Assembly (NCBI GenBank): GCA_022600535.1
Contig: JAHZKE010000043.1
Coordinates: 1-39,000, forward strand
DNA from: Pseudomonadota bacterium
GTDB lineage: Bacteria; Pseudomonadota; Gammaproteobacteria; Tethybacterales; Persebacteraceae
Direction: 5' to 3'
Length of the DNA stretch: 39,000 nt
A program made the translations under genes and the position numbers. Within the stretch, counting starts at the first letter, position 1; each line of letters starts with the position of its first letter. The notes below the pieces were generated by a model. The model was not told the origin of the DNA. It searched no databases and saw only the letters and a list, made by a program, of their open reading frames with translations. This document shows positions 4,231 through 30,212 of the stretch, piece by piece.

Positions 4231-4321
4231 GGAGGGATGGCCGAGTGGTCGAAGGCGCACGCCTGGAAAGCGTGTATATGGCAAAACCGTATCGTGGGTT
4301 CGAATCCCACTCTCTCCGCCA
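4231..4321 (+). tRNA. tRNA-Ser (anticodon GGA), CCA encoded
   Basis: GGAGGGA acceptor pairs with TCTCTCC; GCCGAGTGG D-arm, anticodon stem CACGC/GCGTG around CTGGAAA, long variable arm (class II), GGGTTCGAATCCC T-arm, G+CCA end. Confidence 0.95.
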
Positions 4322-4337
4322 CTTAACAATAGAAAAT

Positions 4338-4555
4338 AATCGCTGGCTGAGCTTGCCTGTGCTGAGCCCCGCCGAAGTATCGAAGCCCCAAGAAACAATC
4401 GCTGGCTGAGCTTGCCTGTGCTGAGCTTGTCGAAGTATCGAAGCCCCCCTATAGCTTGCAACCAATGTTATTAATATTAAAAACAAGTCCCTCATACTCC
4501 TTGACGACCCTTCGACAAGCTCAGGGAGCGACTGATCAAGAGCAGGGAGCGACTG
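4338..4555. repeat. Cluster of direct and inverted repeats containing CTGAGCTTGTCGAAG / CTTCGACAAGCTCAG
   Basis: Two ~50-bp direct copies of AATCGCTGGCTGAGCTTGCCTGTGCTGAGC....CGAAGTATCGAAGCCCC (from 4338 and 4397), an exact 15-bp inverted repeat (4421-4435 vs 4510-4524), and a 13-bp direct repeat CAGGGAGCGACTG (4522, 4543). Confidence 0.85.
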
Positions 4556-4684
4556 GTTTTTAGTTTATTAGTTACTAAAAAAATAATCATTCGGGGCTCC
4601 ACACCAAAGGAGAGGAATTTAATTAATCATTTAGACATAGATTAATTTTTGCAATGTATTATACTAAAAATAATACAAAAAAAC

Positions 4685-4713
4685 TTGTAAAATAATTTTT
4701 TAAGGTGTATAAT
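4685..4713 (+). promoter_or_regulatory. Sigma70-like promoter TTGTAA-N17-TATAAT before the restriction-modification operon
   Basis: -35 TTGTAA 4685-4690, 17-nt spacer, -10 TATAAT 4708-4713; ATG at 4720, about where transcription would start. Confidence 0.6.
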
Positions 4714-4719
4714 TGCTAA

Positions 4720-5328
4720 ATGCTACAAAATTTATCAGATGCAAAATTAAAAAATATTTCTAACCTACAAATCGGATTAAACCTGATGCGAAAAGAAGGC
4801 AAGCCCTACGATGAAAAGCAACATCCCTATAAACTGGTCATGTTAAAATCTTTTTGCCGGACAGGGAAACTAGTTGAACATTCGCTGGGTAAATTTATCT
4901 CCGATAAAACCATCGCAAACAGATACCTCACCCGCCAAGGCGATGTACTTGTGCGTTTGCGTACCCCAAATTTAGCCATTTGTATTGAAGACGAAAAACA
5001 TGAAGGATTATTAATTTCCGCTCTCATGGTAAAAATAACCCCCCATGAAAACATAAACGCCCGCTACCTAACCAACTATATTAACTCTGCCTTTATGCAA
5101 AAAAAAATCAGCAGAAAAATTGAATCCGTTACGATACCCATGCTAAATGTAAGAGAATTAGAAAATTTAACAATCATCGCTCCCCCTGCCGACAAACAAC
5201 AGACACTAAACAAAATAGTAGAACAATCACAAAAAGAAATAGCACTATTAGAACAACTCGCATCGCTAAAAAAACAACTTAATAATGCATATTTCAACCA
5301 ATTTATAAACAACGAGATAAAACAATGA
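4720..5328 (+). CDS. Short type I restriction specificity (HsdS-like) protein with a single target recognition domain
   Basis: 202 aa; one TRD-like region with NLTIIAPPADKQQTLNKIVEQSQKEIALLEQLASLKKQLNNAYFNQFI coiled-coil end typical of HsdS; overlaps hsdM by ATGA. Confidence 0.75.
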   Translation: MLQNLSDAKLKNISNLQIGLNLMRKEGKPYDEKQHPYKLVMLKSFCRTGKLVEHSLGKFISDKTIANRYLTRQGDVLVRLRTPNLAICIEDEKHEGLLISALMVKITPHENINARYLTNYINSAFMQKKISRKIESVTIPMLNVRELENLTIIAPPADKQQTLNKIVEQSQKEIALLEQLASLKKQLNNAYFNQFINNEIKQ

Positions 5329-6812
5329 CAACAACAAAAGAAACCATTAATAACGTCGTATGGCGAGCATGTGATAGTTTTAGAGGCACAATGGATAGTT
5401 CTCTGTATAAAGATTACATCCTGAGTATGCTCTTTGTTAAATATCTCTCTGATTTTTATCACGAAAAAGTATCCGCCTTAGAAGCAAAATATACAGGGGA
5501 TAAAGCCATGATACAAAAAGCACTGCAAAGAGAAAAATTTATCTTAGATGATCGTTGTACTTTTGAATATTTACTAAAAAATAAAGAAAGCGCCAACCTC
5601 GGCGAAGTCATTAACAAAGCATTGGAAAGAATAGAAGAAGACAACCCCGAAAAACTGAATGGTATTTTTAGAAATGTAGATTTTAACGATAGCAAAGTAT
5701 TAGGCGACACCAAAGAAAGAAACGCCACCTTAAAAAATCTATTAGAAGATTTTAGCGACCCAAAATTAGACCTAAGCCCGAGCAAGCTGGCGGGGCGTGA
5801 TGTTATTGGTGACAGTTACGAGTATTTAATCTCACATTTCGCTAGCGATGCCGGCAAAAAAGGCGGTGAATTTTATACCCCTAACGAAGTATCCACCCTA
5901 CTAGCTAAATTAGTCGCGCCGACAGAAGGCAACCGAATATACGACCCTACTTGTGGCTCTGCCTCATTGCTCATTAAAGCAGCAAAAGAAGTCGGCAATA
6001 ATAATTTTGCCATTTACGGACAAGAAAAAAACGGACAAACACACGCGTTAAGCCGTATGAACATGTACCTGCACGAAATCAACGACGCCAAAATTGAATG
6101 GGGCGATACCATCAGAAACCCGCTCCACCTTGAAAACGATAAACTAATGAAGTTTGATATTGTTGTCGCTAACCCGCCCTTTAGTTTAGACAAATGGGGC
6201 GTTGAAGAAGCCGAAACTGATAAGCACAACCGATTTAAAGACATAGGAATCCCACCTAAAAGCAAAGGCGATTATGCCTTTGTTATCCACATGATAAAAA
6301 GCTTAAATGAAAATGGAAAAATGGGCGTTGTACTACCGCATGGCGTATTATTTCGCGGGGCGAGCGAGGGGAAAATCCGCAAAAAATTTATTGACGACAA
6401 CCTACTGGATGCAGTTATTGGTTTGCCTGCCAACCTCTTTTTTGGCACCAGCATACCCGCAACAATCCTCATTTTTAAAAAGAACAGAAAAAATAAGGAT
6501 ATTTTATTTATTGATGCCAGCCGTGAATTTGACAAAGAAAAAAACCAAAACGCCATCACCGATGAGCAGATCAATAAAATTTGTGCCACCTATAGCAACC
6601 GCAAACAAATAGAGAAATACAGTTATAAAGCAAGTATAGAAGAAATACAAGAAAACGACTACAACCTCAATATCCCCCGCTATATAGACACCTTTGAAGA
6701 AGAACAACAAATAGACATCAAAGCAACCAAACAGCAAATAACCGCCATAGAAAAAGAATTAACCAAAGTAAAAAACCAAATGGACACCTACCTAAAAGAG
6801 CTGAATTTATAA
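5325..6812 (+). CDS. hsdM: Type I restriction-modification system methyltransferase subunit
   Basis: N-terminal HsdM helical domain, KKGGEFYTPNEVSTLLAKL, YDPTCGSASLLIKA, FDIVVANPPFSLDKWG (NPPF motif IV). Confidence 0.96.
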   Translation: MTTTKETINNVVWRACDSFRGTMDSSLYKDYILSMLFVKYLSDFYHEKVSALEAKYTGDKAMIQKALQREKFILDDRCTFEYLLKNKESANLGEVINKALERIEEDNPEKLNGIFRNVDFNDSKVLGDTKERNATLKNLLEDFSDPKLDLSPSKLAGRDVIGDSYEYLISHFASDAGKKGGEFYTPNEVSTLLAKLVAPTEGNRIYDPTCGSASLLIKAAKEVGNNNFAIYGQEKNGQTHALSRMNMYLHEINDAKIEWGDTIRNPLHLENDKLMKFDIVVANPPFSLDKWGVEEAETDKHNRFKDIGIPPKSKGDYAFVIHMIKSLNENGKMGVVLPHGVLFRGASEGKIRKKFIDDNLLDAVIGLPANLFFGTSIPATILIFKKNRKNKDILFIDASREFDKEKNQNAITDEQINKICATYSNRKQIEKYSYKASIEEIQENDYNLNIPRYIDTFEEEQQIDIKATKQQITAIEKELTKVKNQMDTYLKELNL

Positions 6813-6854
6813 ATAAAGTAAGAATATGGCAAAAATATTAACATATAGCAACCT

Positions 6855-6886
6855 ATCTGCTCAAAAAACCAATTTTTTGAGCAGAT
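6855..6886. repeat. Perfect 14-bp inverted repeat ATCTGCTCAAAAAA-CCAA-TTTTTTGAGCAGAT in the hsdM-hsdS gap
   Basis: Arms 6855-6868 and 6873-6886, 4-nt loop; near-copy of right arm TTTTTTGAACAGATG at 6914-6928. Confidence 0.9.
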
Positions 6887-6998
6887 GCCGTATGATATGT
6901 AACAAAACAACCCTTTTTTGAACAGATGAACACACTTAAACAAATTTTACAAACGACAACATTAGTTGCCATACTAAGTAACAGCAAGAGTTTAGCAA

Positions 6999-8153
6999 AT
7001 GATAAATAATACCCTCCCCAAAGGATACAAACAAAGCAAAGTCGGGGTTATTCCTCATGGATGGGAGCGGCATGAGTTGAAAAATTTAATTGAAATATCA
7101 AAAAATACATTTAATCCAAAAATCTCTAATGAAAATAAAAAATGTATTGAACTAGAACATATATCGCAAGAGACAGGGCAATTATTGGGATTTACAAACT
7201 CAAGTGAGCAGCAAAGTGTAAAAAATATATTCAAAAAAAATCAAGTGTTATTTGGAAAGCTCAGACCATATTTAAGAAAATTTTGGAAAGCCCAATTTGA
7301 TGGTGTATGTTCTAGTGAAATATGGACAATAAATGGAATTAAATTAACTAATGATTATTTATTCCAGTTTATTCAAACTAGTAAGTTTAATAAAATTGCT
7401 AATAAATCTAGCGGGTCTAAGATGCCTAGAGCCGATTGGAAATATATGTCTGAAATTCCTTTTAATGTTCCGCTTATAAAAGAACAAGAAAAAATAGCAA
7501 AAATTCTAACAACTTGGGACAACGCCATAGAGCAACAACAAGAATTAATTGATAAAAAACAGCAATTAAAAAAAGGATTAATGCAGCAACTCCTAACAGG
7601 AAAAACCCGCTTCCCCTGCTTTACCGGCAATTGGAAAAAATTAGAGTTTGAAAATATTTTTGAACGAATACCAAGCAAAAATTATCAAATTAATTCTACT
7701 GAATATTTAGAAAAAGGTGATTTTCCAGTAATTGATCAAGGAAAAAAATTTATTGTTGGATACACTAATGACAAAAATAAGTTATTTAATAATAATGGAG
7801 TAATAATTTTTGGTGACCACACTAGAAAATTAAAATATATTGATTTTGATTTTATCGTTGGGGCAGATGGCGTCCAATTAATTAGAACCAAAGTAAATTA
7901 TGATAATAAATTTTTTTACTATCAATTGCTATCAAAAAAAATACCGAACACTGGCTACAATAGGCATTTCAAATTTTTACTAAAAATAACTTTCTATGTA
8001 CCATCTGCTATCGAGCAACAAAAAATAACCGAAGTATTAAGCAATGCAGATAAAGAAATAGAATTACTTAATAAAGAACTATACGAAATAAAACAACAAA
8101 AAAAAGCACTAATGCAAAAATTACTAACTGGAAAGGTGAGGGTTAAATTATGA
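6999..8153 (+). CDS. hsdS: Type I restriction specificity subunit with two target recognition domains
   Basis: Two TRDs separated by conserved repeats KKGLMQQLLTGKTRFP and QKKALMQKLLTGKVRVKL; opens GYKQSKVGVIPHGWE. Confidence 0.95.
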   Translation: MINNTLPKGYKQSKVGVIPHGWERHELKNLIEISKNTFNPKISNENKKCIELEHISQETGQLLGFTNSSEQQSVKNIFKKNQVLFGKLRPYLRKFWKAQFDGVCSSEIWTINGIKLTNDYLFQFIQTSKFNKIANKSSGSKMPRADWKYMSEIPFNVPLIKEQEKIAKILTTWDNAIEQQQELIDKKQQLKKGLMQQLLTGKTRFPCFTGNWKKLEFENIFERIPSKNYQINSTEYLEKGDFPVIDQGKKFIVGYTNDKNKLFNNNGVIIFGDHTRKLKYIDFDFIVGADGVQLIRTKVNYDNKFFYYQLLSKKIPNTGYNRHFKFLLKITFYVPSAIEQQKITEVLSNADKEIELLNKELYEIKQQKKALMQKLLTGKVRVKL

Positions 8154-9184
8154 CATTACTAACTTATGAAGAAGTAAAAAATAAAATTGGAGATGACAAA
8201 AATAGAGCATTACTATTAGGAAATGGATTTAGCATGTCTTATGACGAAAAAAGATTCTCTTTTGCTAATTTGCTTGATAGTGCTATAAAAGAAGATTTGT
8301 TCGGAAAGAATAGCCCTGCCTATAAAACTTTTGAATATGTTAAAAGCGTAGATTTTGAAGAAGTAATTAAATTTTTAGAATCGCCAACAGCGATAGAGAT
8401 AATTAATTCAATTATAGTTGAAAATGGCAAGCAATTTAAAAATAAAGATGCAATAATAAAAAAATTAAAAAAAATTTTAGTAGATGTAATAACAATCAAT
8501 CACCCTGAAGGAATTATGAATCAAAAATCTCATCATGCTTTCTGCTTTATTGGCTACTACAAAAAAATTTATACACTAAATTATGATTTATTACTATATT
8601 GGTTATGCTTAAAATTATTAAACTTGAACGCTCTTGAAAAATATCACCTATTTGACGACAATAATCAAATTTTATTATTAAAAGTAAATGATGGTTTTTT
8701 CAAAGAACCGTATAATTTAGATACATATTTTTGTAATAACGAGACAAAGCAAACAATTTTTTATTTGCATGGCGGCTTACATATTTACAATAAACAAAAT
8801 AATATTATAAAGATAACACATAGCAAAGAACAACAAAAACTCAGCGATCAAATACGTCAAAATATCAAGCAAGACAATTACCCACTTTTCGTGTCAGAGG
8901 GAAGCAGTGATAACAAAAAAAATAAAATTACTAATAATAATTATCTTAATCATTGCTATAAAAATTTAGCTAATGGCGGAGGCGAAAATAGTCATTTGGT
9001 TATTTTTGGAACTAAACTGAAAACAAATGATAACCATATAAAAGATATAATCTTGAAAGGGAAATTTGAAAATATATACATTGGGATAAAAAATATAGAC
9101 GAAAAAGAATTATTCGCTGATTTTGAAGACAGTGGGAAAAATATAATTTACTATGATTACCAAACTGTAAAAGTTTGGGGATAA
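8150..9184 (+). CDS. DUF4917-like protein with SIR2-like motif pattern
   Basis: LLLGNGFSMSYDE, KIYTLNYDLLLYWL, FYLHGGLHIY, FVSEGSSDNKKNKITNNNYLNHCYKNLA, HLVIFGTKLKTNDNHIKDII; ATGA overlap with hsdS stop. Confidence 0.7.
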   Translation: MTLLTYEEVKNKIGDDKNRALLLGNGFSMSYDEKRFSFANLLDSAIKEDLFGKNSPAYKTFEYVKSVDFEEVIKFLESPTAIEIINSIIVENGKQFKNKDAIIKKLKKILVDVITINHPEGIMNQKSHHAFCFIGYYKKIYTLNYDLLLYWLCLKLLNLNALEKYHLFDDNNQILLLKVNDGFFKEPYNLDTYFCNNETKQTIFYLHGGLHIYNKQNNIIKITHSKEQQKLSDQIRQNIKQDNYPLFVSEGSSDNKKNKITNNNYLNHCYKNLANGGGENSHLVIFGTKLKTNDNHIKDIILKGKFENIYIGIKNIDEKELFADFEDSGKNIIYYDYQTVKVWG

Positions 9185-9220
9185 AAATTTATTCCCAATG
9201 AAAAAATTGATTACTCATTT

Positions 9221-9318
9221 AATAAAAGTTATAATAGCGGTAACACAACCGCCACGCCTACTCTACGATGCGAAACTTGGGCGGCTTTTCTATGCCTTAA
9301 TGGTAAGCATAATGCCTA
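9221..9318 (+). repeat. Direct repeat copy 1 of hsdR leader
   Basis: AATAAAAGTTATAATAGCG.TAACACAA..CCGCCACGCCTA...ACGATGCG.AAC.TGG.CGGCTTTT.TATGCC..AATGG.AAGCATAATG, matching 9422-9526 with substitutions and a 12-13 nt gap. Confidence 0.85.
9249..9289 (+). terminator. Degenerate copy of terminator-like hairpin upstream of hsdR
   Basis: CCGCC...GGCGG followed by CTTTT; first of two similar leader segments. Confidence 0.45.
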
Positions 9319-9421
9319 CCCTCCCCCATCAAAAGCAATATTTTACCGCTCAAAAGCCGGCAGCAATGGGGATAAATATACCTAATAATGCCAATACAGC
9401 AAAAAAGTTTATTTTTCCCAT

Positions 9422-9526
9422 AATAAAAGTTATAATAGCGATAACACAACAGTTAACACAGCCGCCACGCCTATCCACGATGCGCAACCTTGGCGGCTTT
9501 TTTATGCCCAAATGGGAAGCATAATG
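9422..9526 (+). repeat. Direct repeat copy 2 of hsdR leader, extending to the hsdR start codon
   Basis: See copy 1 (9221-9318). Confidence 0.85.
9461..9503 (+). terminator. Intrinsic terminator-like hairpin GCCGCCA...TGGCGGC-TTTTTT just before hsdR
   Basis: Perfect 7-bp stem followed by six T; ends ~20 nt before ATG 9524. Confidence 0.6.
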
Positions 9527-12500
9527 TCTAAAATCCCCAAGACGAGCGAGAATTACATCCAGCAAAATACCATTACTCTACTTGAGAGTATGGGCTATAT
9601 TTTTATTCGCCGCGAGCGAAACATCACACTGCGAGAGGGAAAACTTAATGAGGTGGTATTTAAAACTATACTGAGCCAACAACTCAAAAAAATAAATGGT
9701 TTTAATTATAAGGGTAAGAAATATAAATTTTCAGATAAAAATATCGCTAAAGCGATTGAGGCGTTAGATGTTCCGCTCAATGAAGGGCTAATAAATGCGA
9801 ACCAAAAAATAAGCGATAAGATAATATTGGGCAGTAGTTATGAGGAAGATCTGCACGATGGCGCTAAAAAAAGTTTTTCACTTAAATATATTGATTGGGA
9901 AAATATTGAAAATAATGTTTTTCATGTTAGCGAAGAGTTTTCGGTAGAAAGACAAACAAAGATAGAACGGGATAAAAACAGACGCCCCGATTTAGTGCTT
10001 TTTATTAATGGCATTCCGCTGGCAGTGGTTGAGCTTAAAAAATCCAGTGTCGCAACAGAAGAAGGTATTTCGCAGATGGTACGCAATCAGGGAAAGGACG
10101 AAATACCGCACCTGTTTAAATATATACAACTGACGCTTGCGGGTAATAGCCACGAACCAAAGTATGCAACAACGGGAACGAGTAGCAATTTTTATGCGAT
10201 ATGGAAAGAGGAAAACCCCAATAAAGAATTAAAACAGCTAATAACGAAAAGAAGTATCAGTGCATTGGATAAAATTGTCTATTCGCTTTTTAATAAAAGT
10301 CGGCTGATTGAAATTTTACAATCTTATATTCTCTTTGATAAAAAGGTAAAAAAAATAGCGCGCTATCCGCAATTTTTTGCTCTGCAAGCGATAATGAAGA
10401 AAATAGAAACTTTTGACAAAGCAGGAATACGCGGCGGTGGGCTTATTTGGCATACGCAAGGTAGCGGAAAATCGCTGACGATGTCTATGCTTACCAAGGT
10501 AATTATGAGAAATATCCCCGGGGCAAAGTTAATTGTTGTTACCGATAGAAAAGATTTAGATAAACAAATTAATCAGACATTTACCAATAGCGAAATAAAG
10601 GCGGGGCGTGCTACCAGTGGACACGATTTAATTGAAAAACTGCAATCGGGGATGAGTATCATTACAACGCTAGTACATAAATTTGAAACAGTAGCGAAAG
10701 AAAAAATAACGCTTGCTGACCCGAATATTTTTGTGATTGTGGATGAATCGCACCGAACACAAGGCGGCGATTTGCATAGAGCAATGAAAAAAGTGTTCAC
10801 GCATGGTTGCTATCTTGCATTTACGGGCACGCCGTTATTAAAAGAAAATAAAAATTCTATTGCTAAATTTGGCGGATTGCTTCATAAATATACAATTGAC
10901 CAAGCGGTGCAAGATAAAGCGGTACTCCCTCTGCTGTATGAGGGGCGATTAGTAGACCAATGGATTAGTGACCAAGATAGCTTAGATAGAAAGTTTGCGT
11001 TGATTTCGGCTAATCTTAATGAGAAGGAAACAGCTGACTTAAAACAAAAATGGGCGCGATTTACAAAGATCGCTTCTAGTGAGCAACGATTAGAAATGAT
11101 TGCCGTAGATATTGACGCACACTTCATTAAGCATATAAAAGATACGGGTTTTAAAGGAATGTTAGCAACCAGTAGTAAGTATGATGCGATTAAATATCAT
11201 TCTATTTTTGAAGAATTTGGACATATCAAAACGGCGTTTATTATTTCGCCACCGGATGCACGGGATGGTTTTGAGGAGGTGGACGAAGGGAATAAGCAGT
11301 ATGTAGCGGCAGCATGGAATAAACTGGTAAAAGAACATGGCGATGCAGAACAGTATTTAGAAAATATAAAAGATAAGTTTGTAGAAGGGGAAGAAATAGA
11401 TTTACTGATTGTAGTAGATAAATTGCTGACGGGTTTTGATGCCCCACGGGCGCAAATGCTCTATATAGATAAAGAGCTAAAAGACCATACGCTACTGCAA
11501 GCAATCGCAAGGGTGAATCGGCTTTATGATGGCAAACAATTTGGTATTATTATAGATTACCGCGGGTTGCTCGGTAATTTAGACCAAGCGTTAACTTCCT
11601 ATAGTTCTTTTGATGGTTTTGATGAACAAGATATTATCGGGGCAGTAATTGATATTAATAACGAAATCGCTAAGGTAAAGACGTCTTATTCGTATCTTAA
11701 AGAGTTATTTGCACCGGTAGAAAATAAGGAGGATAACGAGAGTTATGAGGTTTTTCTGGCAGCGGAAGAAAAAAGAAAAGAGTTTTACCAACTGCTTTCT
11801 CAATATGGTGTTGCATTGAAGTTAGCGCTTTCCAGCGACAAAGCTTACGAATTATTTACCACAAAAGAAATAGACAATTATAAAAAAGTAATGAAGTTTT
11901 ATAGTGAACTGAGGAAGAGTGTAAAAATACGCTATCACGAAGAAGTGGATTTTGGTTTGTATGAAAAACAAATGCAAAAACTATTAGATACTTTTATTTA
12001 TGCCAAAGATATAGACCAAATTACAAAATTAGTTAATGTTTTTGACGAGGGTTTTGAAGCTGAACTTGAGCGTGTTGTCGGCAATAATGCGCGAGCGGAT
12101 GTTATTTTAAGTGCGACAACAAAGGTGATTAGTGAAAAACGCGAACAAAACCCTGCTTATTATGACAAACTCTCAAAGCGTATCCAAAAGATATTAGATG
12201 AGTATAAAGAAAATAGGTTAAGTGATGATGAAAAGTTAGAACACGCCAAAGATATTCGCACCATGTTAATGGAAAAAAACAATGTTGATAAAGGCGAGTA
12301 TCCTGACGAGATTAAGCATAATCCCCCTGCGCGTGCTTTTTATGATAACTTGCAAGAGGCAATGCAAGAAGTGCCTCCTGAAGCATTTATTACCACGATA
12401 TTAGAAATAAATGCGATTTTTAAAGAGATCGCTAAAAAACCAGATTGGCAAATAAATACTGATGTTAAAAATGAAATAGACCAACAGATAGATGATATTT

Positions 12501-12601
12501 TTTGGACGCTTAAAGAAACGCATGATATAAAACTTGCAGATAGCGATGAGCTTATCGTACAAGTGCGTTCTATTGGTATTAGTAATTATGCAAGTAAATA
12601 A
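9524..12601 (+). CDS. hsdR: Type I restriction endonuclease subunit R
   Basis: RRPDLVLFINGIPLAVVELKKSS nuclease motif, GGGLIWHTQGSGKSLTM Walker A, VDESHRTQGG, LAFTGTPLL, VVDKLLTGFDAP, QAIARVNR. Start at 9524 preferred over 9512 (same frame). Confidence 0.96.
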   Translation: MSKIPKTSENYIQQNTITLLESMGYIFIRRERNITLREGKLNEVVFKTILSQQLKKINGFNYKGKKYKFSDKNIAKAIEALDVPLNEGLINANQKISDKIILGSSYEEDLHDGAKKSFSLKYIDWENIENNVFHVSEEFSVERQTKIERDKNRRPDLVLFINGIPLAVVELKKSSVATEEGISQMVRNQGKDEIPHLFKYIQLTLAGNSHEPKYATTGTSSNFYAIWKEENPNKELKQLITKRSISALDKIVYSLFNKSRLIEILQSYILFDKKVKKIARYPQFFALQAIMKKIETFDKAGIRGGGLIWHTQGSGKSLTMSMLTKVIMRNIPGAKLIVVTDRKDLDKQINQTFTNSEIKAGRATSGHDLIEKLQSGMSIITTLVHKFETVAKEKITLADPNIFVIVDESHRTQGGDLHRAMKKVFTHGCYLAFTGTPLLKENKNSIAKFGGLLHKYTIDQAVQDKAVLPLLYEGRLVDQWISDQDSLDRKFALISANLNEKETADLKQKWARFTKIASSEQRLEMIAVDIDAHFIKHIKDTGFKGMLATSSKYDAIKYHSIFEEFGHIKTAFIISPPDARDGFEEVDEGNKQYVAAAWNKLVKEHGDAEQYLENIKDKFVEGEEIDLLIVVDKLLTGFDAPRAQMLYIDKELKDHTLLQAIARVNRLYDGKQFGIIIDYRGLLGNLDQALTSYSSFDGFDEQDIIGAVIDINNEIAKVKTSYSYLKELFAPVENKEDNESYEVFLAAEEKRKEFYQLLSQYGVALKLALSSDKAYELFTTKEIDNYKKVMKFYSELRKSVKIRYHEEVDFGLYEKQMQKLLDTFIYAKDIDQITKLVNVFDEGFEAELERVVGNNARADVILSATTKVISEKREQNPAYYDKLSKRIQKILDEYKENRLSDDEKLEHAKDIRTMLMEKNNVDKGEYPDEIKHNPPARAFYDNLQEAMQEVPPEAFITTILEINAIFKEIAKKPDWQINTDVKNEIDQQIDDIFWTLKETHDIKLADSDELIVQVRSIGISNYASK

Positions 12602-13250
12602 TGTTGCGGTCATCTATAAAGATGTTAAACATGCCAATTTGAGAGTGCGCCCCAATAAAGAGGTAATATTAACGGTGCCTCTAAATATGACGAATGGGGA
12701 AATAAAGTATATTCTCAACAAAAGAGCAGATTGGATAAAAAAACAGTTGGTTCTATTTAATCAAAATGAACCTATTAAACGAGAGTTAGTCAGTGGTGAA
12801 AATTTTGTCTATTTGGGAAAAAACTATCGGCTCAAGGTGATAGAGGCACAAGAGGAAAGAGTCAAGCTAAATCGCGGTTATTTTGAGTTATATGTAAAGG
12901 ATAAACAGCACTATACGAAAAAAGAAAAATTAATTGAGAGTTGGTATAAAACAAAGGCGGCGGTGCATTTTCAAAAAACAATAGAAAAGTATCAACCGAT
13001 TGTTAAAAAGGATATAAAGACAATACGCATCCGTTCTATGAAAACACGCTGGGGGTCTTGCAATCCGAAAAAGTCCTATATTAATTTAAATCTTGAGTTA
13101 ATTAAAAAATCAAAGGCATCTATTGAATATGTTGTTTTTCACGAATTGACACACTTAATCCACCACAATCATAGTGCAAAATTTTATAATTATCTAACCT
13201 TACACATGCCAGATTGGAAAAAAAGAAAATTGATTTTAGATAATCAATAG
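12588..13250 (+). CDS. YgjP-like (DUF45/SprT-like) zinc metallopeptidase
   Basis: RSMKTRWGSCNPKKSYINLNLELI and HELTHLIHHNHSAKFY (HExxH). Start set at ATG 12588, overlapping the hsdR end. Confidence 0.85.
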   Translation: MQVNNVAVIYKDVKHANLRVRPNKEVILTVPLNMTNGEIKYILNKRADWIKKQLVLFNQNEPIKRELVSGENFVYLGKNYRLKVIEAQEERVKLNRGYFELYVKDKQHYTKKEKLIESWYKTKAAVHFQKTIEKYQPIVKKDIKTIRIRSMKTRWGSCNPKKSYINLNLELIKKSKASIEYVVFHELTHLIHHNHSAKFYNYLTLHMPDWKKRKLILDNQ

Positions 13251-26957: not shown

Positions 26958-27115
26958 CAATTGTTTTCCGTATCAATTGTATCAATATTAAGCCGTTTTC
27001 TCGCCCGTTGCGTTTTTTCAGACAAACCCAACGGTATCGCGGGTTGTCCGACACTTCCTCTATTACGGCGTTCTTTCTTTTTTATTCGCCCCGCCGTTAT
27101 CAAGCGGCAACTCAA
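26957..27115 (-). CDS. Possible 52-aa basic small ORF between the dprA-like gene and pgi (TTG start)
   Basis: MSCRLITAGRIKKKERRNRGSVGQPAIPLGLSEKTQRARKRLNIDTIDTENN*; start overlaps the dprA-like stop, stop overlaps the pgi ATG (TGATG). No convincing Shine-Dalgarno. Confidence 0.25.
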   Translation of the reverse strand: MSCRLITAGRIKKKERRNRGSVGQPAIPLGLSEKTQRARKRLNIDTIDTENN

Positions 27116-28092
27116 TCAAAAAGGTTCGGTGCTTCCTGCTTTGTTACTGTGGATTTGCTTGCTAAGTCCGACAGATGTTGCCGAAAGTCCTCGCTGTTAA
27201 TAAGTTCGGTTAATGGGGCTGCCCCATAATGCACTAATTGACTATTGCCCGGCGGCGTATTATCTCCTGCTCTAACAAAAACGGGTAATGAATTTTCATG
27301 TTTAAGGGCTTCAACTGCACCTGTCCATGTTCCGCCTTTTTTATACTCAGCACTCACTACCAAAGCATAATCTGATAGGGCATAGATTAGTTTGTTTCTG
27401 TTCATTGCGCCGCCCGCAGTAAAGTGTGCGTGCGGGTGGTAGGGAGAGATTAATAATAAACGCCCCTCAGCAATTGCCCCGCGTGCTTCGCGCTCTACGC
27501 TTTTCGCTAACAAATTATCGGCAATAATTCCTACGCTTGCGCCGCCTGCTGCTAATGCTGCGGTCATCGCAATTTGGTCAACTCCTTTTGCCCCTCCCGA
27601 AACAACGGGCATATTATTTTTCGCACAAATCTCGGCAATGTTGCGGGCAAAATCTGCACCTGCTTCATCTACCATACGCGAACCGACAATGCTTAACCCG
27701 CCGCCCTTTAATAAATTACGATTGCCAACACCGAATAATAATGGTGGGGATTTTTCTCCAAGATATTTTTTATAACGCGCGGGATAATCTGCATCACTTC
27801 TGCTGATGATCCATATTCCGTTGCGTTGCCATTGTTCTACTGCAAAGCCAAGTTGCACGCCTCTTGCAAGCAAGTGTTGCAAACGTTTTTCGTCTATTTT
27901 GGTATCAATAGATGCTTTAAAAATTCGCTCTCCCTGCAATAAATCACTTGGGCGCATTGCTAACTCTTTAAGCCGTCGCACAAGGGCAGAATATTCGCTT
28001 TGTGATAGCGGTTTTTCACTCTCTCTTGCCCCGAAAACACCACAAAGCAAAAGGATTGCTTTTGTATCTTCGGTTAAAGAGTTGACTGGCAT
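27112..28092 (-). CDS. Divergent DprA/Smf-like Rossmann (SLOG) protein
   Basis: LSIVGSRMVDEAGADFARNIAEICAKNNMPVVSGGAKGVDQIAMTAALAAGG, GAMNRNKLIYALSDYALVVSAEYKKGGTWTGAVEALK, NSQLVHYGAAPL. Start at ATG 28090-28092 overlapping the RecQ-like stop (TAATG); ORF-track start 28236 lies inside recQ. Confidence 0.88.
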   Translation of the reverse strand: MPVNSLTEDTKAILLLCGVFGARESEKPLSQSEYSALVRRLKELAMRPSDLLQGERIFKASIDTKIDEKRLQHLLARGVQLGFAVEQWQRNGIWIISRSDADYPARYKKYLGEKSPPLLFGVGNRNLLKGGGLSIVGSRMVDEAGADFARNIAEICAKNNMPVVSGGAKGVDQIAMTAALAAGGASVGIIADNLLAKSVEREARGAIAEGRLLLISPYHPHAHFTAGGAMNRNKLIYALSDYALVVSAEYKKGGTWTGAVEALKHENSLPVFVRAGDNTPPGNSQLVHYGAAPLTELINSEDFRQHLSDLASKSTVTKQEAPNLFD

Positions 28093-30212
28093 TAGTCCAT
28101 CTTGGGTGAGTTTAGAGCTAATGCCATAGGCAGAACGGCAAAACAATCCGATTGTTGCAGTAGGGCAGCGGCGACTGTAAATGTCCAACGCGAATCGACC
28201 ATATCGTCTATTAATAGGCAGGTGCCTTCTCGGCATTGTTCGTTTATATAAAATGCGCCGTCAAGATTTTTTGCTTGTTGATAGCTATTTTTCATCTCTT
28301 TTTGCGGCGGGTTTGCACAATGTTTTTCAATGCACGGGATGAAGGGTAAATTAAGTGCGTGAGCTAAACGTTGCGCAAAGTCGGGGACTAATTCGGGATG
28401 ATTAAGCGAAGGGATGCAACTCACCCAATCGGGGGCTGGTTTAGGTTTCCATCGTTTTAACATTTCTACACAAGCGGCAACGAGTTTATCCGAAAATATC
28501 CCTGATGTATCTTTTCCATCGGCTACCATCGCCCCCCAACCGGCATCGCGCCACAGGCTCAATACCCTACCTTCGCGAGGGCGGAGAGATTGGGGGATGG
28601 TAAAACTATCAAATCTATAGCAATCAAACATATTGGTTTTTGCCCATTGTTTTCTGGGTTTGATTTTATGATGGCTTTGACAAAGAAATAATTTTGCTTG
28701 CTTGTTTAGCTCTTCATCTATCGTTTCATCTAATAATAATTCTGGTTTGCAGTTTTTGCATTGTCCGCAATCGGTGGGAGAGGTATCGTCTAAGGCATCT
28801 TGCAAAAATTTCATTAGACATGTTGAACATTCCATATAGTCCCGCATCTGTCGTTGTTCTTCTCGCCTGATATTGCTGATGTTATCAATGTGTTCTTGAT
28901 TGACCTGATAGGAAGCAGCAGCGACAGTAACTTGCCACTTCGCTGCCCCTTTGTTAAGAGCAATTTTTGTAATTGGCGATGGCGATTCAATGGTCAGAAA
29001 TTTTAAAGTTTTTCTCAGTTGCCCCTCCGTTAAATTTAAAATACTTTGCATTTCCGGCACCGAGAGACCACTGTCTGCTTCATCTAAAGCGGTGAGTATT
29101 TTTGTAATGTCCTGTTGCGGCGGGAAGGCATTTTTAATAAAATAATCGGAAATGTGCTCATCTTCTTTTCCGCAAAGTAGTACGCCGCGGGCTTCATCCA
29201 CTGCCCGCCCTGCCCGTCCCACTTGCTGATAATAATGCACGACTGATGCGGGGCGTTGATAGTGAATCACAAAACCTAAATCGGGTTTATCAAAGCCCAT
29301 ACCTAATGCAACGGTTGCGACTAATACTTTAATTTCATTATTGAGTAGTTGCTGTTCTAAATCTTCTTTAACCGAGCTGCCGTCTTCTCGGTTGGGGATG
29401 TCCGAATGATACGCTTCTGCTTTAATATTATTTTCCACCAACCATTTTGCGACTTGTTCGGCGTCGTGTTTAGTCAGTGCATACACAATACCGCTACCGG
29501 TCAGGGTGGGAATGGTTTTTGCCAACCATGCCATACGCGTAGCTTGGTCGGGGATATTGATGTTTTGTAGCTTCAAACTTTTACGAACTAACGACCCTCT
29601 TTGTACAATAATATTCTCTCCCAACTGTTGTTCTACATCTTCAACAACACGGTTATTTGCTGTTGCTGTGGTTGCCAAAACGGGGACATTAGACGGCAAT
29701 GCTTCTATGATACGCCCAATACGGCGGTAATCCGGTCTAAAGTCATGTCCCCAATCAGAAATACAATGGGCTTCATCAACAACAAATAAACCAATGTCAT
29801 TGCTCATCTTTGCTAATGTGTTTTGGACAAATTTTTCATTTGCTAAACGTTCAGGGGAAATTAACAAAATATCCACTTCGTTCGCGGCTAATTCTTTTTC
29901 AATTTGTATCCACTCATTAGGATTCGTGCTGTTAATTGTGCGCGTGACTAATCCTATTTTTGCCGCTGCTTCCAGTTGGTTACGCATGAGCGAAAGTAAG
30001 GGCGAAATTAACAGGGTTGGACCCTCCCCCTGCTCACGCAATAACTTTGCCGCAAGAAAATAGACCATGCTTTTCCCCCAACCGGTGTGCTGCACGACCA
30101 AAACACGCTTTTTATTTAGTAATTGTTCAATGCTTTCCCATTGCCCGGCGCGAAAATCTGCGTTGGGATTATCTAATGCCTGTTGCAGATATTCTTTTGC
30201 TTGTTGTTTCAT
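28092..30212 (-). CDS. RecQ-like ATP-dependent DNA helicase fused to a C-terminal phosphoribosyltransferase-like domain
   Basis: HTGWGKSMVYFLAAKLL (Walker A), FVVDEAHCISDWGHDFRPDYRRIG, ATVALGMGFDKPDLGFVIHYQRPASVVHYYQQVGRAGRA, CSTC...CGQCKNC zinc motif; C-terminal GTCLLIDDMVDSRWTFTVAAALL resembles a PRPP loop. Confidence 0.9.
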   Translation of the reverse strand: MKQQAKEYLQQALDNPNADFRAGQWESIEQLLNKKRVLVVQHTGWGKSMVYFLAAKLLREQGEGPTLLISPLLSLMRNQLEAAAKIGLVTRTINSTNPNEWIQIEKELAANEVDILLISPERLANEKFVQNTLAKMSNDIGLFVVDEAHCISDWGHDFRPDYRRIGRIIEALPSNVPVLATTATANNRVVEDVEQQLGENIIVQRGSLVRKSLKLQNINIPDQATRMAWLAKTIPTLTGSGIVYALTKHDAEQVAKWLVENNIKAEAYHSDIPNREDGSSVKEDLEQQLLNNEIKVLVATVALGMGFDKPDLGFVIHYQRPASVVHYYQQVGRAGRAVDEARGVLLCGKEDEHISDYFIKNAFPPQQDITKILTALDEADSGLSVPEMQSILNLTEGQLRKTLKFLTIESPSPITKIALNKGAAKWQVTVAAASYQVNQEHIDNISNIRREEQRQMRDYMECSTCLMKFLQDALDDTSPTDCGQCKNCKPELLLDETIDEELNKQAKLFLCQSHHKIKPRKQWAKTNMFDCYRFDSFTIPQSLRPREGRVLSLWRDAGWGAMVADGKDTSGIFSDKLVAACVEMLKRWKPKPAPDWVSCIPSLNHPELVPDFAQRLAHALNLPFIPCIEKHCANPPQKEMKNSYQQAKNLDGAFYINEQCREGTCLLIDDMVDSRWTFTVAAALLQQSDCFAVLPMALALNSPKMD

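What the first reader, a model, noticed from the sequence alone, without database searches (positions are those of the whole stretch)
27112..30212. Two-gene module: RecQ-phosphoribosyltransferase fusion plus divergent DprA/Smf-like protein (candidate conflict/defence system)
The sequence shows a RecQ-like helicase with a C-terminal PRTase-like domain whose stop codon overlaps the start of a DprA-like gene (TAATG at 28090-28094), so they should be translated together. A helicase plus an ssDNA/nucleotide-binding SLOG protein plus a PRPP-type nucleotide-processing domain is not a normal competence or housekeeping set. It could sense foreign or damaged DNA and produce or consume a nucleotide signal. 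I recall SLOG/DprA and PRTase domains being discussed in nucleotide-centred conflict systems, but cannot verify a named system here.
Basis: partly seen in the sequence, partly recalled or inferred. Interest (0 to 1): 0.85.

Follow-up and report, generated by a model that had tools for sequence, protein, structure and literature searches.

The report
PsyrTA (RqlHI) toxin–antitoxin defence pair
The two overlapping genes are a complete, intact copy of PsyrTA/RqlHI, an already described bacterial toxin–antitoxin pair counted as a phage-defence system, in which a DNA helicase carries a toxic nucleotide-enzyme domain held in check by a DprA-like partner; it is a real but ordinary new member.

Summary
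In detail: a RecQ-type helicase with a C-terminal PRTase domain (28092-30212, minus strand, 706 aa) overlaps a DprA-like gene (27112-28092, 326 aa) at TAATG 28090-28094. The pair is not an unnamed system. It matches PADLOC PsyrT (E 1.7e-291, residues 2-702) and PsyrA (2.7e-119); other names are RqlH/RqlI. The PRTase fold was confirmed by an AlphaFold2 model (pLDDT 95.6) that matches APRT, ComF, PurF and ShosT in the PDB. All residues shown to matter in E. coli RqlH are kept: Walker K47, DEAH D146 and the PRPP-loop D673. The host keeps separate canonical dprA, recQ and comF genes. The pair is patchy in relatives, and elsewhere sits on plasmids and inside type I R-M, BREX, type ISP R-M and Abi neighbourhoods. 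The most likely mechanism is a PRTase toxin restrained by PsyrA binding and by the helicase, and released on infection or DNA damage. The antitoxin lacks the C-terminal HTH of most relatives, matching the RqlI 1-320 truncation that still neutralises the toxin in E. coli. PsyrT chemistry remains open; phage defence by this copy is inferred, not shown.

The parts
28092..30212 (-). PsyrT/RqlH toxin gene, RecQ-like SF2 helicase with C-terminal PRTase domain, 706 aa
   Evidence: PADLOC PsyrT PDLC03928 E 1.7e-291 over residues 2-702; 69% identical over the full length to a Kistimonas MAG protein
29139..30161 (-). RecQ-type helicase core (residues 18-358)
   Evidence: TIGR00614 265.6 bits, cut-off 219.8; profile match to solved RecQ 1oyw E 3.1e-66
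30069..30083 (-). Walker A GWGKS (residues 44-48), K47 corresponds to RqlH K49
   Evidence: K47 kept in all 37 paired and 34 unpaired homologues with letters there
29766..29777 (-). DEAH box (residues 146-149), D146 corresponds to RqlH D148
   Evidence: D146 invariant in the aligned homologues
28749..28820 (-). RecQ-type zinc cysteines C465, C482, C485, C488
   Evidence: present in 27-28 of 38 paired homologues, lost in the rest; Pfam RecQ_Zn_bind only sub-threshold, 0.0012
28095..28700 (-). ComF-like phosphoribosyltransferase domain (residues 505-706), the toxic domain in E. coli RqlH
   Evidence: AlphaFold2 pLDDT 95.6, pTM 0.92; Foldseek hits APRT, ComF 7p0h, PurF, ShosT 8zvd/8zvc; hhalign to the genome's own ComF 97.7%
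28182..28217 (-). PRPP loop LLIDDMVDSRWT (residues 666-677); D673 corresponds to RqlH D663, whose replacement removes toxicity
   Evidence: conserved DDxxDSxWT in orthologues; RqlH mutagenesis in PMC4670107
28090..28094 (-). TAATG: psyrT stop overlapping psyrA start
   Evidence: read directly; close or overlapping junctions in many relatives
27112..28092 (-). PsyrA/RqlI antitoxin gene, DprA-like, 326 aa, without the C-terminal HTH tail of most relatives
   Evidence: PADLOC PsyrA E 2.7e-119; AlphaFold2 pLDDT 91.9 matching DprA 3uqz and ShosA 8zva, both 2.4e-15
27208..27831 (-). DprA-type Rossmann domain, motifs VGSR, SGGAKGVD, RNKLIYAL
   Evidence: PF02481; key motif residues invariant in 25 sequences

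Best explanation
This is an intact PsyrTA (RqlHI) toxin-antitoxin pair of the anti-phage class. PsyrT is a RecQ-type helicase that is expected to move on DNA and carries a ComF-like PRTase domain; that domain is the toxin and probably consumes PRPP or makes an abnormal nucleotide product. PsyrA, a DprA-like Rossmann protein translated from the overlapping start, binds the PRTase domain and keeps it off, together with the working helicase. When invading or damaged DNA disturbs the complex, the PRTase is freed, nucleotide and DNA metabolism are damaged, and the cell stops growing or dies, which limits phage spread. Shown here: gene order, overlap, both predicted folds, conserved catalytic residues, patchy distribution and defence neighbourhoods of relatives. 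Shown by others for E. coli RqlHI: PRTase-dependent toxicity, neutralisation by RqlI and physical interaction. Inferred: the trigger, the chemical reaction, and the defence role of this copy.
For: PADLOC PsyrT 1.7e-291 and PsyrA 2.7e-119. Catalytic residues K47, D146 and D669/D670/D673 intact. PRTase and DprA folds predicted with high confidence and matched to solved structures, ShosT (8zvc, 8zvd) and ShosA (8zva) among them. 38 of 80 named PsyrT loci carry PsyrA directly downstream, across many phyla. Defence or mobile contexts: E. coli IncF plasmid with the pair between hsdS and hsdR, Acinetobacter plasmid with the pair between pglX and a DUF262 gene followed by pglZ of BREX, Nostoc plasmid, same-family genome next to a type ISP R-M gene and AbiD. 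Patchy: 6 of 274 class genomes at a strict limit. Canonical dprA (C14), another recQ (C74) and comF (C105) are separate in the same genome. Literature: RqlH toxicity needs the PRTase and D663, RqlI binds the PRTase region, RqlI 1-320 suffices (PMC4670107). The related ShosTA acts by disturbing purine metabolism (PMC12593503).
Against: A PsyrTA from E. coli NILS69 gave no detectable phage protection in the assay reported (PMC12409345), so not every copy defends, or the right phage was not tested. Nearly half of the PsyrT homologues retrieved, mostly from Actinomycetota, lack a detectable PsyrA, so the helicase-PRTase can exist without this antitoxin. The immediate flanks here (pgi, a thioredoxin-like gene) are not defence genes, and the window's R-M island is about 14 kb away.
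Confidence: 0.85

Rival explanations
1. A DNA repair or recombination module rather than defence: helicase, ComF-like PRTase and DprA work together on single-stranded DNA, as ComFA, ComFC and DprA do in natural transformation; the toxicity seen in E. coli is a by-product of unbalancing it.
For: The PRTase is ComF-like (TIGR00201 in 41 of 50 orthologues; hhalign 97.7% to the genome's own ComF; ComF 7p0h among the best structural matches). ComFC binds ssDNA and PRPP, and ComFC of two species interacts with DprA (PMC9005727). The partner is DprA-like. Actinobacterial PsyrT occurs alone.
Against: Patchy occurrence and plasmid, R-M and BREX contexts; separate dprA, recQ and comF in this genome; the harm from losing RqlI is cured by deleting RqlH (PMC4670107), as for a toxin and antitoxin.
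Confidence: 0.1
2. A toxin-antitoxin pair kept by addiction or for stabilising a mobile element, with no real phage defence.
For: Overlapping toxin-antitoxin gene order; found on plasmids; one published test without detectable defence (PMC12409345).
Against: Located inside other defence loci in several genomes; PsyrTA is listed as an abortive-infection system in surveys (PMC10855318); here it lies among housekeeping genes on a contig without visible plasmid genes next to it.
Confidence: 0.15
3. A decayed or silent remnant: the antitoxin was truncated and the pair no longer works.
For: PsyrA lacks the 100-plus residue tail of its nearest relatives.
Against: Both frames are open, all catalytic residues are intact, the antitoxin ends at the domain boundary with no trace of a tail downstream, HTH-less forms occur next to PsyrT in other lineages (L046, L061, L089, L060, L041), and RqlI 1-320 is functional.
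Confidence: 0.04

Closest known systems
PsyrTA of Pseudomonas syringae (Sberro et al. 2013; PADLOC and DefenseFinder PsyrTA)
   Same: Both genes match the family models; same order, RecQ-PRTase then DprA-like; overlapping genes.
   Different: Antitoxin ends at about position 324 of the 398-position PsyrA model, so it has no C-terminal HTH region.
RqlHI of extraintestinal E. coli (Russell and Mulvey 2015, PMC4670107)
   Same: Same domain plan; K49, D148 and D663 correspond to K47, D146 and D673 here; an E. coli plasmid homologue of PsyrT is 52% identical over the full length.
   Different: RqlI has 400 residues with an HTH; the window's antitoxin resembles the functional 1-320 truncation.
ShosTA (structures 8zva, 8zvc, 8zvd; Pu et al. 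2025 as summarised in PMC12593503)
   Same: PRTase toxin plus DprA-like antitoxin; both predicted folds match the solved ShosT and ShosA.
   Different: ShosTA is a PRTase with a DprA-like protein, without the RecQ helicase fusion; the window's antitoxin scores 396.8 bits with PsyrA and 101.4 with ShosA.
ComFA-ComFC-DprA set of natural transformation
   Same: Helicase, ComF-like PRTase and DprA; ComFC contacts DprA in two species (PMC9005727).
   Different: Helicase here is RecQ-type and fused to the PRTase; PRPP loop is DDMVDSRWT instead of DDxxTTGTT; the genome has its own comF and dprA.
Orphan RqlH/SftH-like proteins of Actinomycetota
   Same: Helicase-PRTase proteins about 40% identical over the whole length.
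   Different: No PsyrA detected next to them. That these include the M. smegmatis protein studied earlier is from PMC4670107 and memory, not tested.

Membership tests
PsyrTA / RqlHI | Toxin is a RecQ-type helicase with a C-terminal PRTase domain | tested here: met
   PsyrT model 1.7e-291 over residues 2-702; PRTase fold by AlphaFold2 and Foldseek
PsyrTA / RqlHI | DprA-like antitoxin gene directly downstream | tested here: met
   PsyrA model 2.7e-119; TAATG overlap
PsyrTA / RqlHI | Catalytic residues for ATPase and PRPP binding intact | tested here: met
   K47, D146, D669, D670, D673 present and conserved in the family
PsyrTA / RqlHI | Antitoxin with C-terminal HTH (common, but not treated as defining) | tested here: not met
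   Absent; dispensable in RqlI and absent in other paired homologues
PsyrTA / RqlHI | Toxicity of PsyrT relieved by PsyrA | not testable with these tools
   Needs expression in a laboratory strain
PsyrTA / RqlHI | Phage defence | not testable with these tools
   Needs a phage panel; other copies have mixed published reports
ShosTA | PRTase toxin without a fused helicase | tested here: not met
   PRTase is fused to a RecQ-type helicase
ShosTA | ShosA-type antitoxin | tested here: not met
   ShosA model 101.4 bits against 396.8 for PsyrA
Canonical housekeeping DprA | Reaches the curated dprA equivalog cut-off | tested here: not met
   TIGR00732 100.2 bits, cut-off 191.15; a much better DprA match (E 1.2e-78) is on contig C14
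Canonical RecQ | Reaches the curated recQ equivalog cut-off | tested here: not met
   TIGR01389 299.8 bits, cut-off 640.2; another RecQ-like frame of 615 aa is on contig C74
DpdF of the Dpd system | Match to NCBIfam DpdF at its cut-off | tested here: not met
   NF041063 141.9 bits, cut-off 550
DpdF of the Dpd system | dpd partner genes nearby | not tested
   No partner models were run on all neighbours; none is evident on reading the ORF list

The most novel reading that the evidence does not exclude
PsyrT acts chemically on DNA: while the helicase unwinds its substrate, the ComF-like PRTase with its altered PRPP loop (DDMVDSRWT) transfers phosphoribose from PRPP to bases in the exposed strand, and PsyrA blocks or reverses this. 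That would be a DNA-modifying toxin built from competence-type parts, in line with the speculation in PMC4670107.
Probability: 0.12. Interest if true: 0.7.

Novelty: new member of a known kind. Interest (0 to 1): 0.2.

Why it matters
It adds an intact PsyrTA from a small (1.6 Mb) genome to a widespread toxin-antitoxin and defence family whose biochemical reaction is still unsettled. Its naturally HTH-free antitoxin mirrors the RqlI 1-320 laboratory truncation, so nature has repeated the experiment and the core antitoxin can be predicted to suffice. The close match of the PRTase to ComF and of the partner to DprA supports the idea that such systems were assembled from parts that handle single-stranded DNA in transformation.

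Tried and rejected
(1) Pfam and phmmer with the window's PRTase domain alone found nothing useful; the domain had to be shown through orthologues, profile and structure. (2) Search for a lost HTH tail downstream of psyrA: no remnant; the one match, E 0.013, lies inside pgi and is taken as chance. (3) Empty-site test in relatives failed: pgi and the thioredoxin-like gene are on different contigs in the two same-family genomes, so no clean before-and-after site exists. (4) PsyrA in phage records: no match at 1e-10. (5) Promoter-like sites were not above chance; terminator-like sites were about twice the shuffled mean, but nearly all lie on the opposite strand inside the genes, so no transcription claim is made. 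(6) Filing under ShosTA or Dpd rejected by scores and missing features. (7) Idea that PsyrT without PsyrA has lost its PRPP loop: not supported, the loop is kept in most. (8) The PsyrT family tally of 76 of 76 genomes is caused by ordinary helicases; only three genomes, own included, match over the full length.

Full report
WHAT IS THERE. Two minus-strand genes overlap exactly as reported. The first, 28092-30212, encodes 706 residues; the second, 27112-28092, encodes 326 residues, and the stop and start share TAATG at 28090-28094. The second frame is open further upstream (to 28236), but alignment to relatives places the true start at the overlap. The first protein has a RecQ-type helicase core (TIGR00614, 265.6 bits, above its cut-off), but falls well short of the recQ equivalog cut-off. 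The second has a DprA domain (PF02481, 8.2e-40) but not a canonical DprA score.

WHAT IT IS. PADLOC models name the pair at once: PsyrT E 1.7e-291 covering residues 2-702, and PsyrA E 2.7e-119. PsyrTA and RqlHI are two names for the same kind of system. psyrTA is cited as a validated toxin-antitoxin family (Sberro et al. 2013, quoted in PMC8790059). RqlHI was studied in E. coli (PMC4670107). PsyrTA is counted among abortive-infection defence systems in surveys (PMC10855318). The nearest proteins found are 69% identical (PsyrT, Kistimonas MAG) and 69% identical (PsyrA of the same locus), so the pair appears to have travelled together.

THE PRTASE DOMAIN. Pfam sees nothing in the window's own C-terminal 202 residues, but 37 of 50 aligned domains match PF00156 and 41 of 50 match TIGR00201 comF. 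A profile of the 50 matches solved PRPP synthetases and PRTases. The AlphaFold2 model has pLDDT 95.6 and pTM 0.92. Its structural matches include APRT, H. pylori ComF, PurF, and the toxin ShosT. TM-scores are moderate (about 0.4-0.53), so this is a divergent member of the fold. hhalign against the genome's own ComF protein gives 97.7% probability, and the PRPP loops align: LLIDDMVDSRWTF against LLVDDVMTSGATL.

ACTIVE SITES. In E. coli RqlH, deletion of the PRTase domain or D663A removes the growth-inhibiting and SOS-inducing effects, and helicase mutants K49A and D148A behave abnormally in a PRTase-dependent way. The corresponding residues here are D673, K47 and D146. K47 and D146 are present in essentially all aligned homologues; D673 is present in 33 of 38 homologues that have PsyrA. 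Nothing suggests decay.

THE ANTITOXIN. The model (pLDDT 91.9) matches DprA of Streptococcus pneumoniae and ShosA of E. coli, both at 2.4e-15. Most paired relatives carry a further 100-plus residues with a conserved C-terminal segment, which I take to correspond to the HTH of RqlI; the window's protein stops before it. No remnant lies downstream. Short forms occur in several other lineages and in a second genome of the same family, where the PsyrA frame ends at about the same place. In E. coli, RqlI 1-320, which lacks the HTH, neutralises RqlH in both assays (PMC4670107). The 326-residue PsyrA is therefore predicted to be functional; what it may have lost is regulation or DNA binding (inference).

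CONTEXT AND DISTRIBUTION. The genome (1.6 Mb, 116 contigs) has a canonical dprA on C14, another RecQ-like frame of 615 residues on C74 and a comF on C105, so the pair is additional to the housekeeping set. Among 76 genomes searched, the window's own included, only three have full-length PsyrT; PsyrA passes a strict limit in 6 of 274 class genomes. The same-family genome with a pair has it in another gene context, next to a type ISP restriction-modification gene and an AbiD/Abi_2 gene. On an E. coli IncF plasmid the pair lies between hsdS and hsdR; on an Acinetobacter plasmid it follows pglX and precedes a DUF262 gene and pglZ of a BREX locus; it is also on a Nostoc plasmid. Of 80 named loci, 38 have PsyrA directly downstream, 34 have none within at least 2.8 kb (mostly Actinomycetota), and 8 are cut by the contig end. 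The missing PsyrA in the 34 could in part be a sensitivity limit of BLAST.

MECHANISM. Best supported: a toxin-antitoxin pair in which the PRTase is the toxin, restrained by PsyrA binding to it and by a working helicase, and released when invading or damaged DNA engages or disturbs the complex. Toxicity, neutralisation and binding are shown for RqlHI, not here. The trigger and reaction are inferred. The closest biochemical guide is ShosTA, where ShosT is reported as a PRTase and pyrophosphatase that disturbs purine metabolism and ShosA binds DNA (PMC12593503). A useful rival view is that helicase, ComF-like PRTase and DprA mirror the transformation proteins; ComFC binds ssDNA and PRPP and contacts DprA in two species (PMC9005727). 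These views may both be true, one for origin and one for present use. A caution: a PsyrTA of E. coli NILS69 gave no detectable phage protection (PMC12409345).

VERDICT. It is a new, intact member with a naturally HTH-free antitoxin. Interest is low to modest.

Noticed in passing
window 4231-13250: A type I restriction-modification island (half HsdS 4720-5328, HsdM 5325-6812, HsdS 6999-8153, HsdR 9512-12601) starts just after a tRNA-Ser gene (4231-4321); GC falls to 0.27-0.37 against 0.39-0.55 around it, so it looks recently acquired.
   Followed up: partly
window 8150-9184: A DUF4917 protein (PADLOC candidate PDC-S21, E 2.1e-81) sits between hsdS and hsdR; its function is unknown.
   Followed up: partly
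window 9201-9538: Imperfect tandem duplication before hsdR: 49 nt at 9201 and 9402 (84%) and 65 nt at 9262 and 9474 (82%), the second copy running into the hsdR start.
   Followed up: no
window 4334-4426: A 34-nt direct repeat (97%) at 4334 and 4393, directly after tRNA-Ser.
   Followed up: no
L019 8022-9412: In Sinorhizobium meliloti Ak57 pSymB the PsyrA homology is spread over two overlapping frames and no gene is annotated there, while psyrT is intact; possible frameshift or sequencing error.
   Followed up: partly
L069-L101: Many Actinomycetota carry full-length PsyrT homologues with a largely conserved PRPP loop but no detectable PsyrA downstream; how their PRTase is restrained is unclear.
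   Followed up: partly
PsyrT residues 465-488 in homologues: The RecQ-type zinc cysteines are missing in about a quarter of PsyrA-paired PsyrT homologues, including L005, L006 and the Sinorhizobium sequence L019, but kept in nearly all unpaired ones.
   Followed up: no
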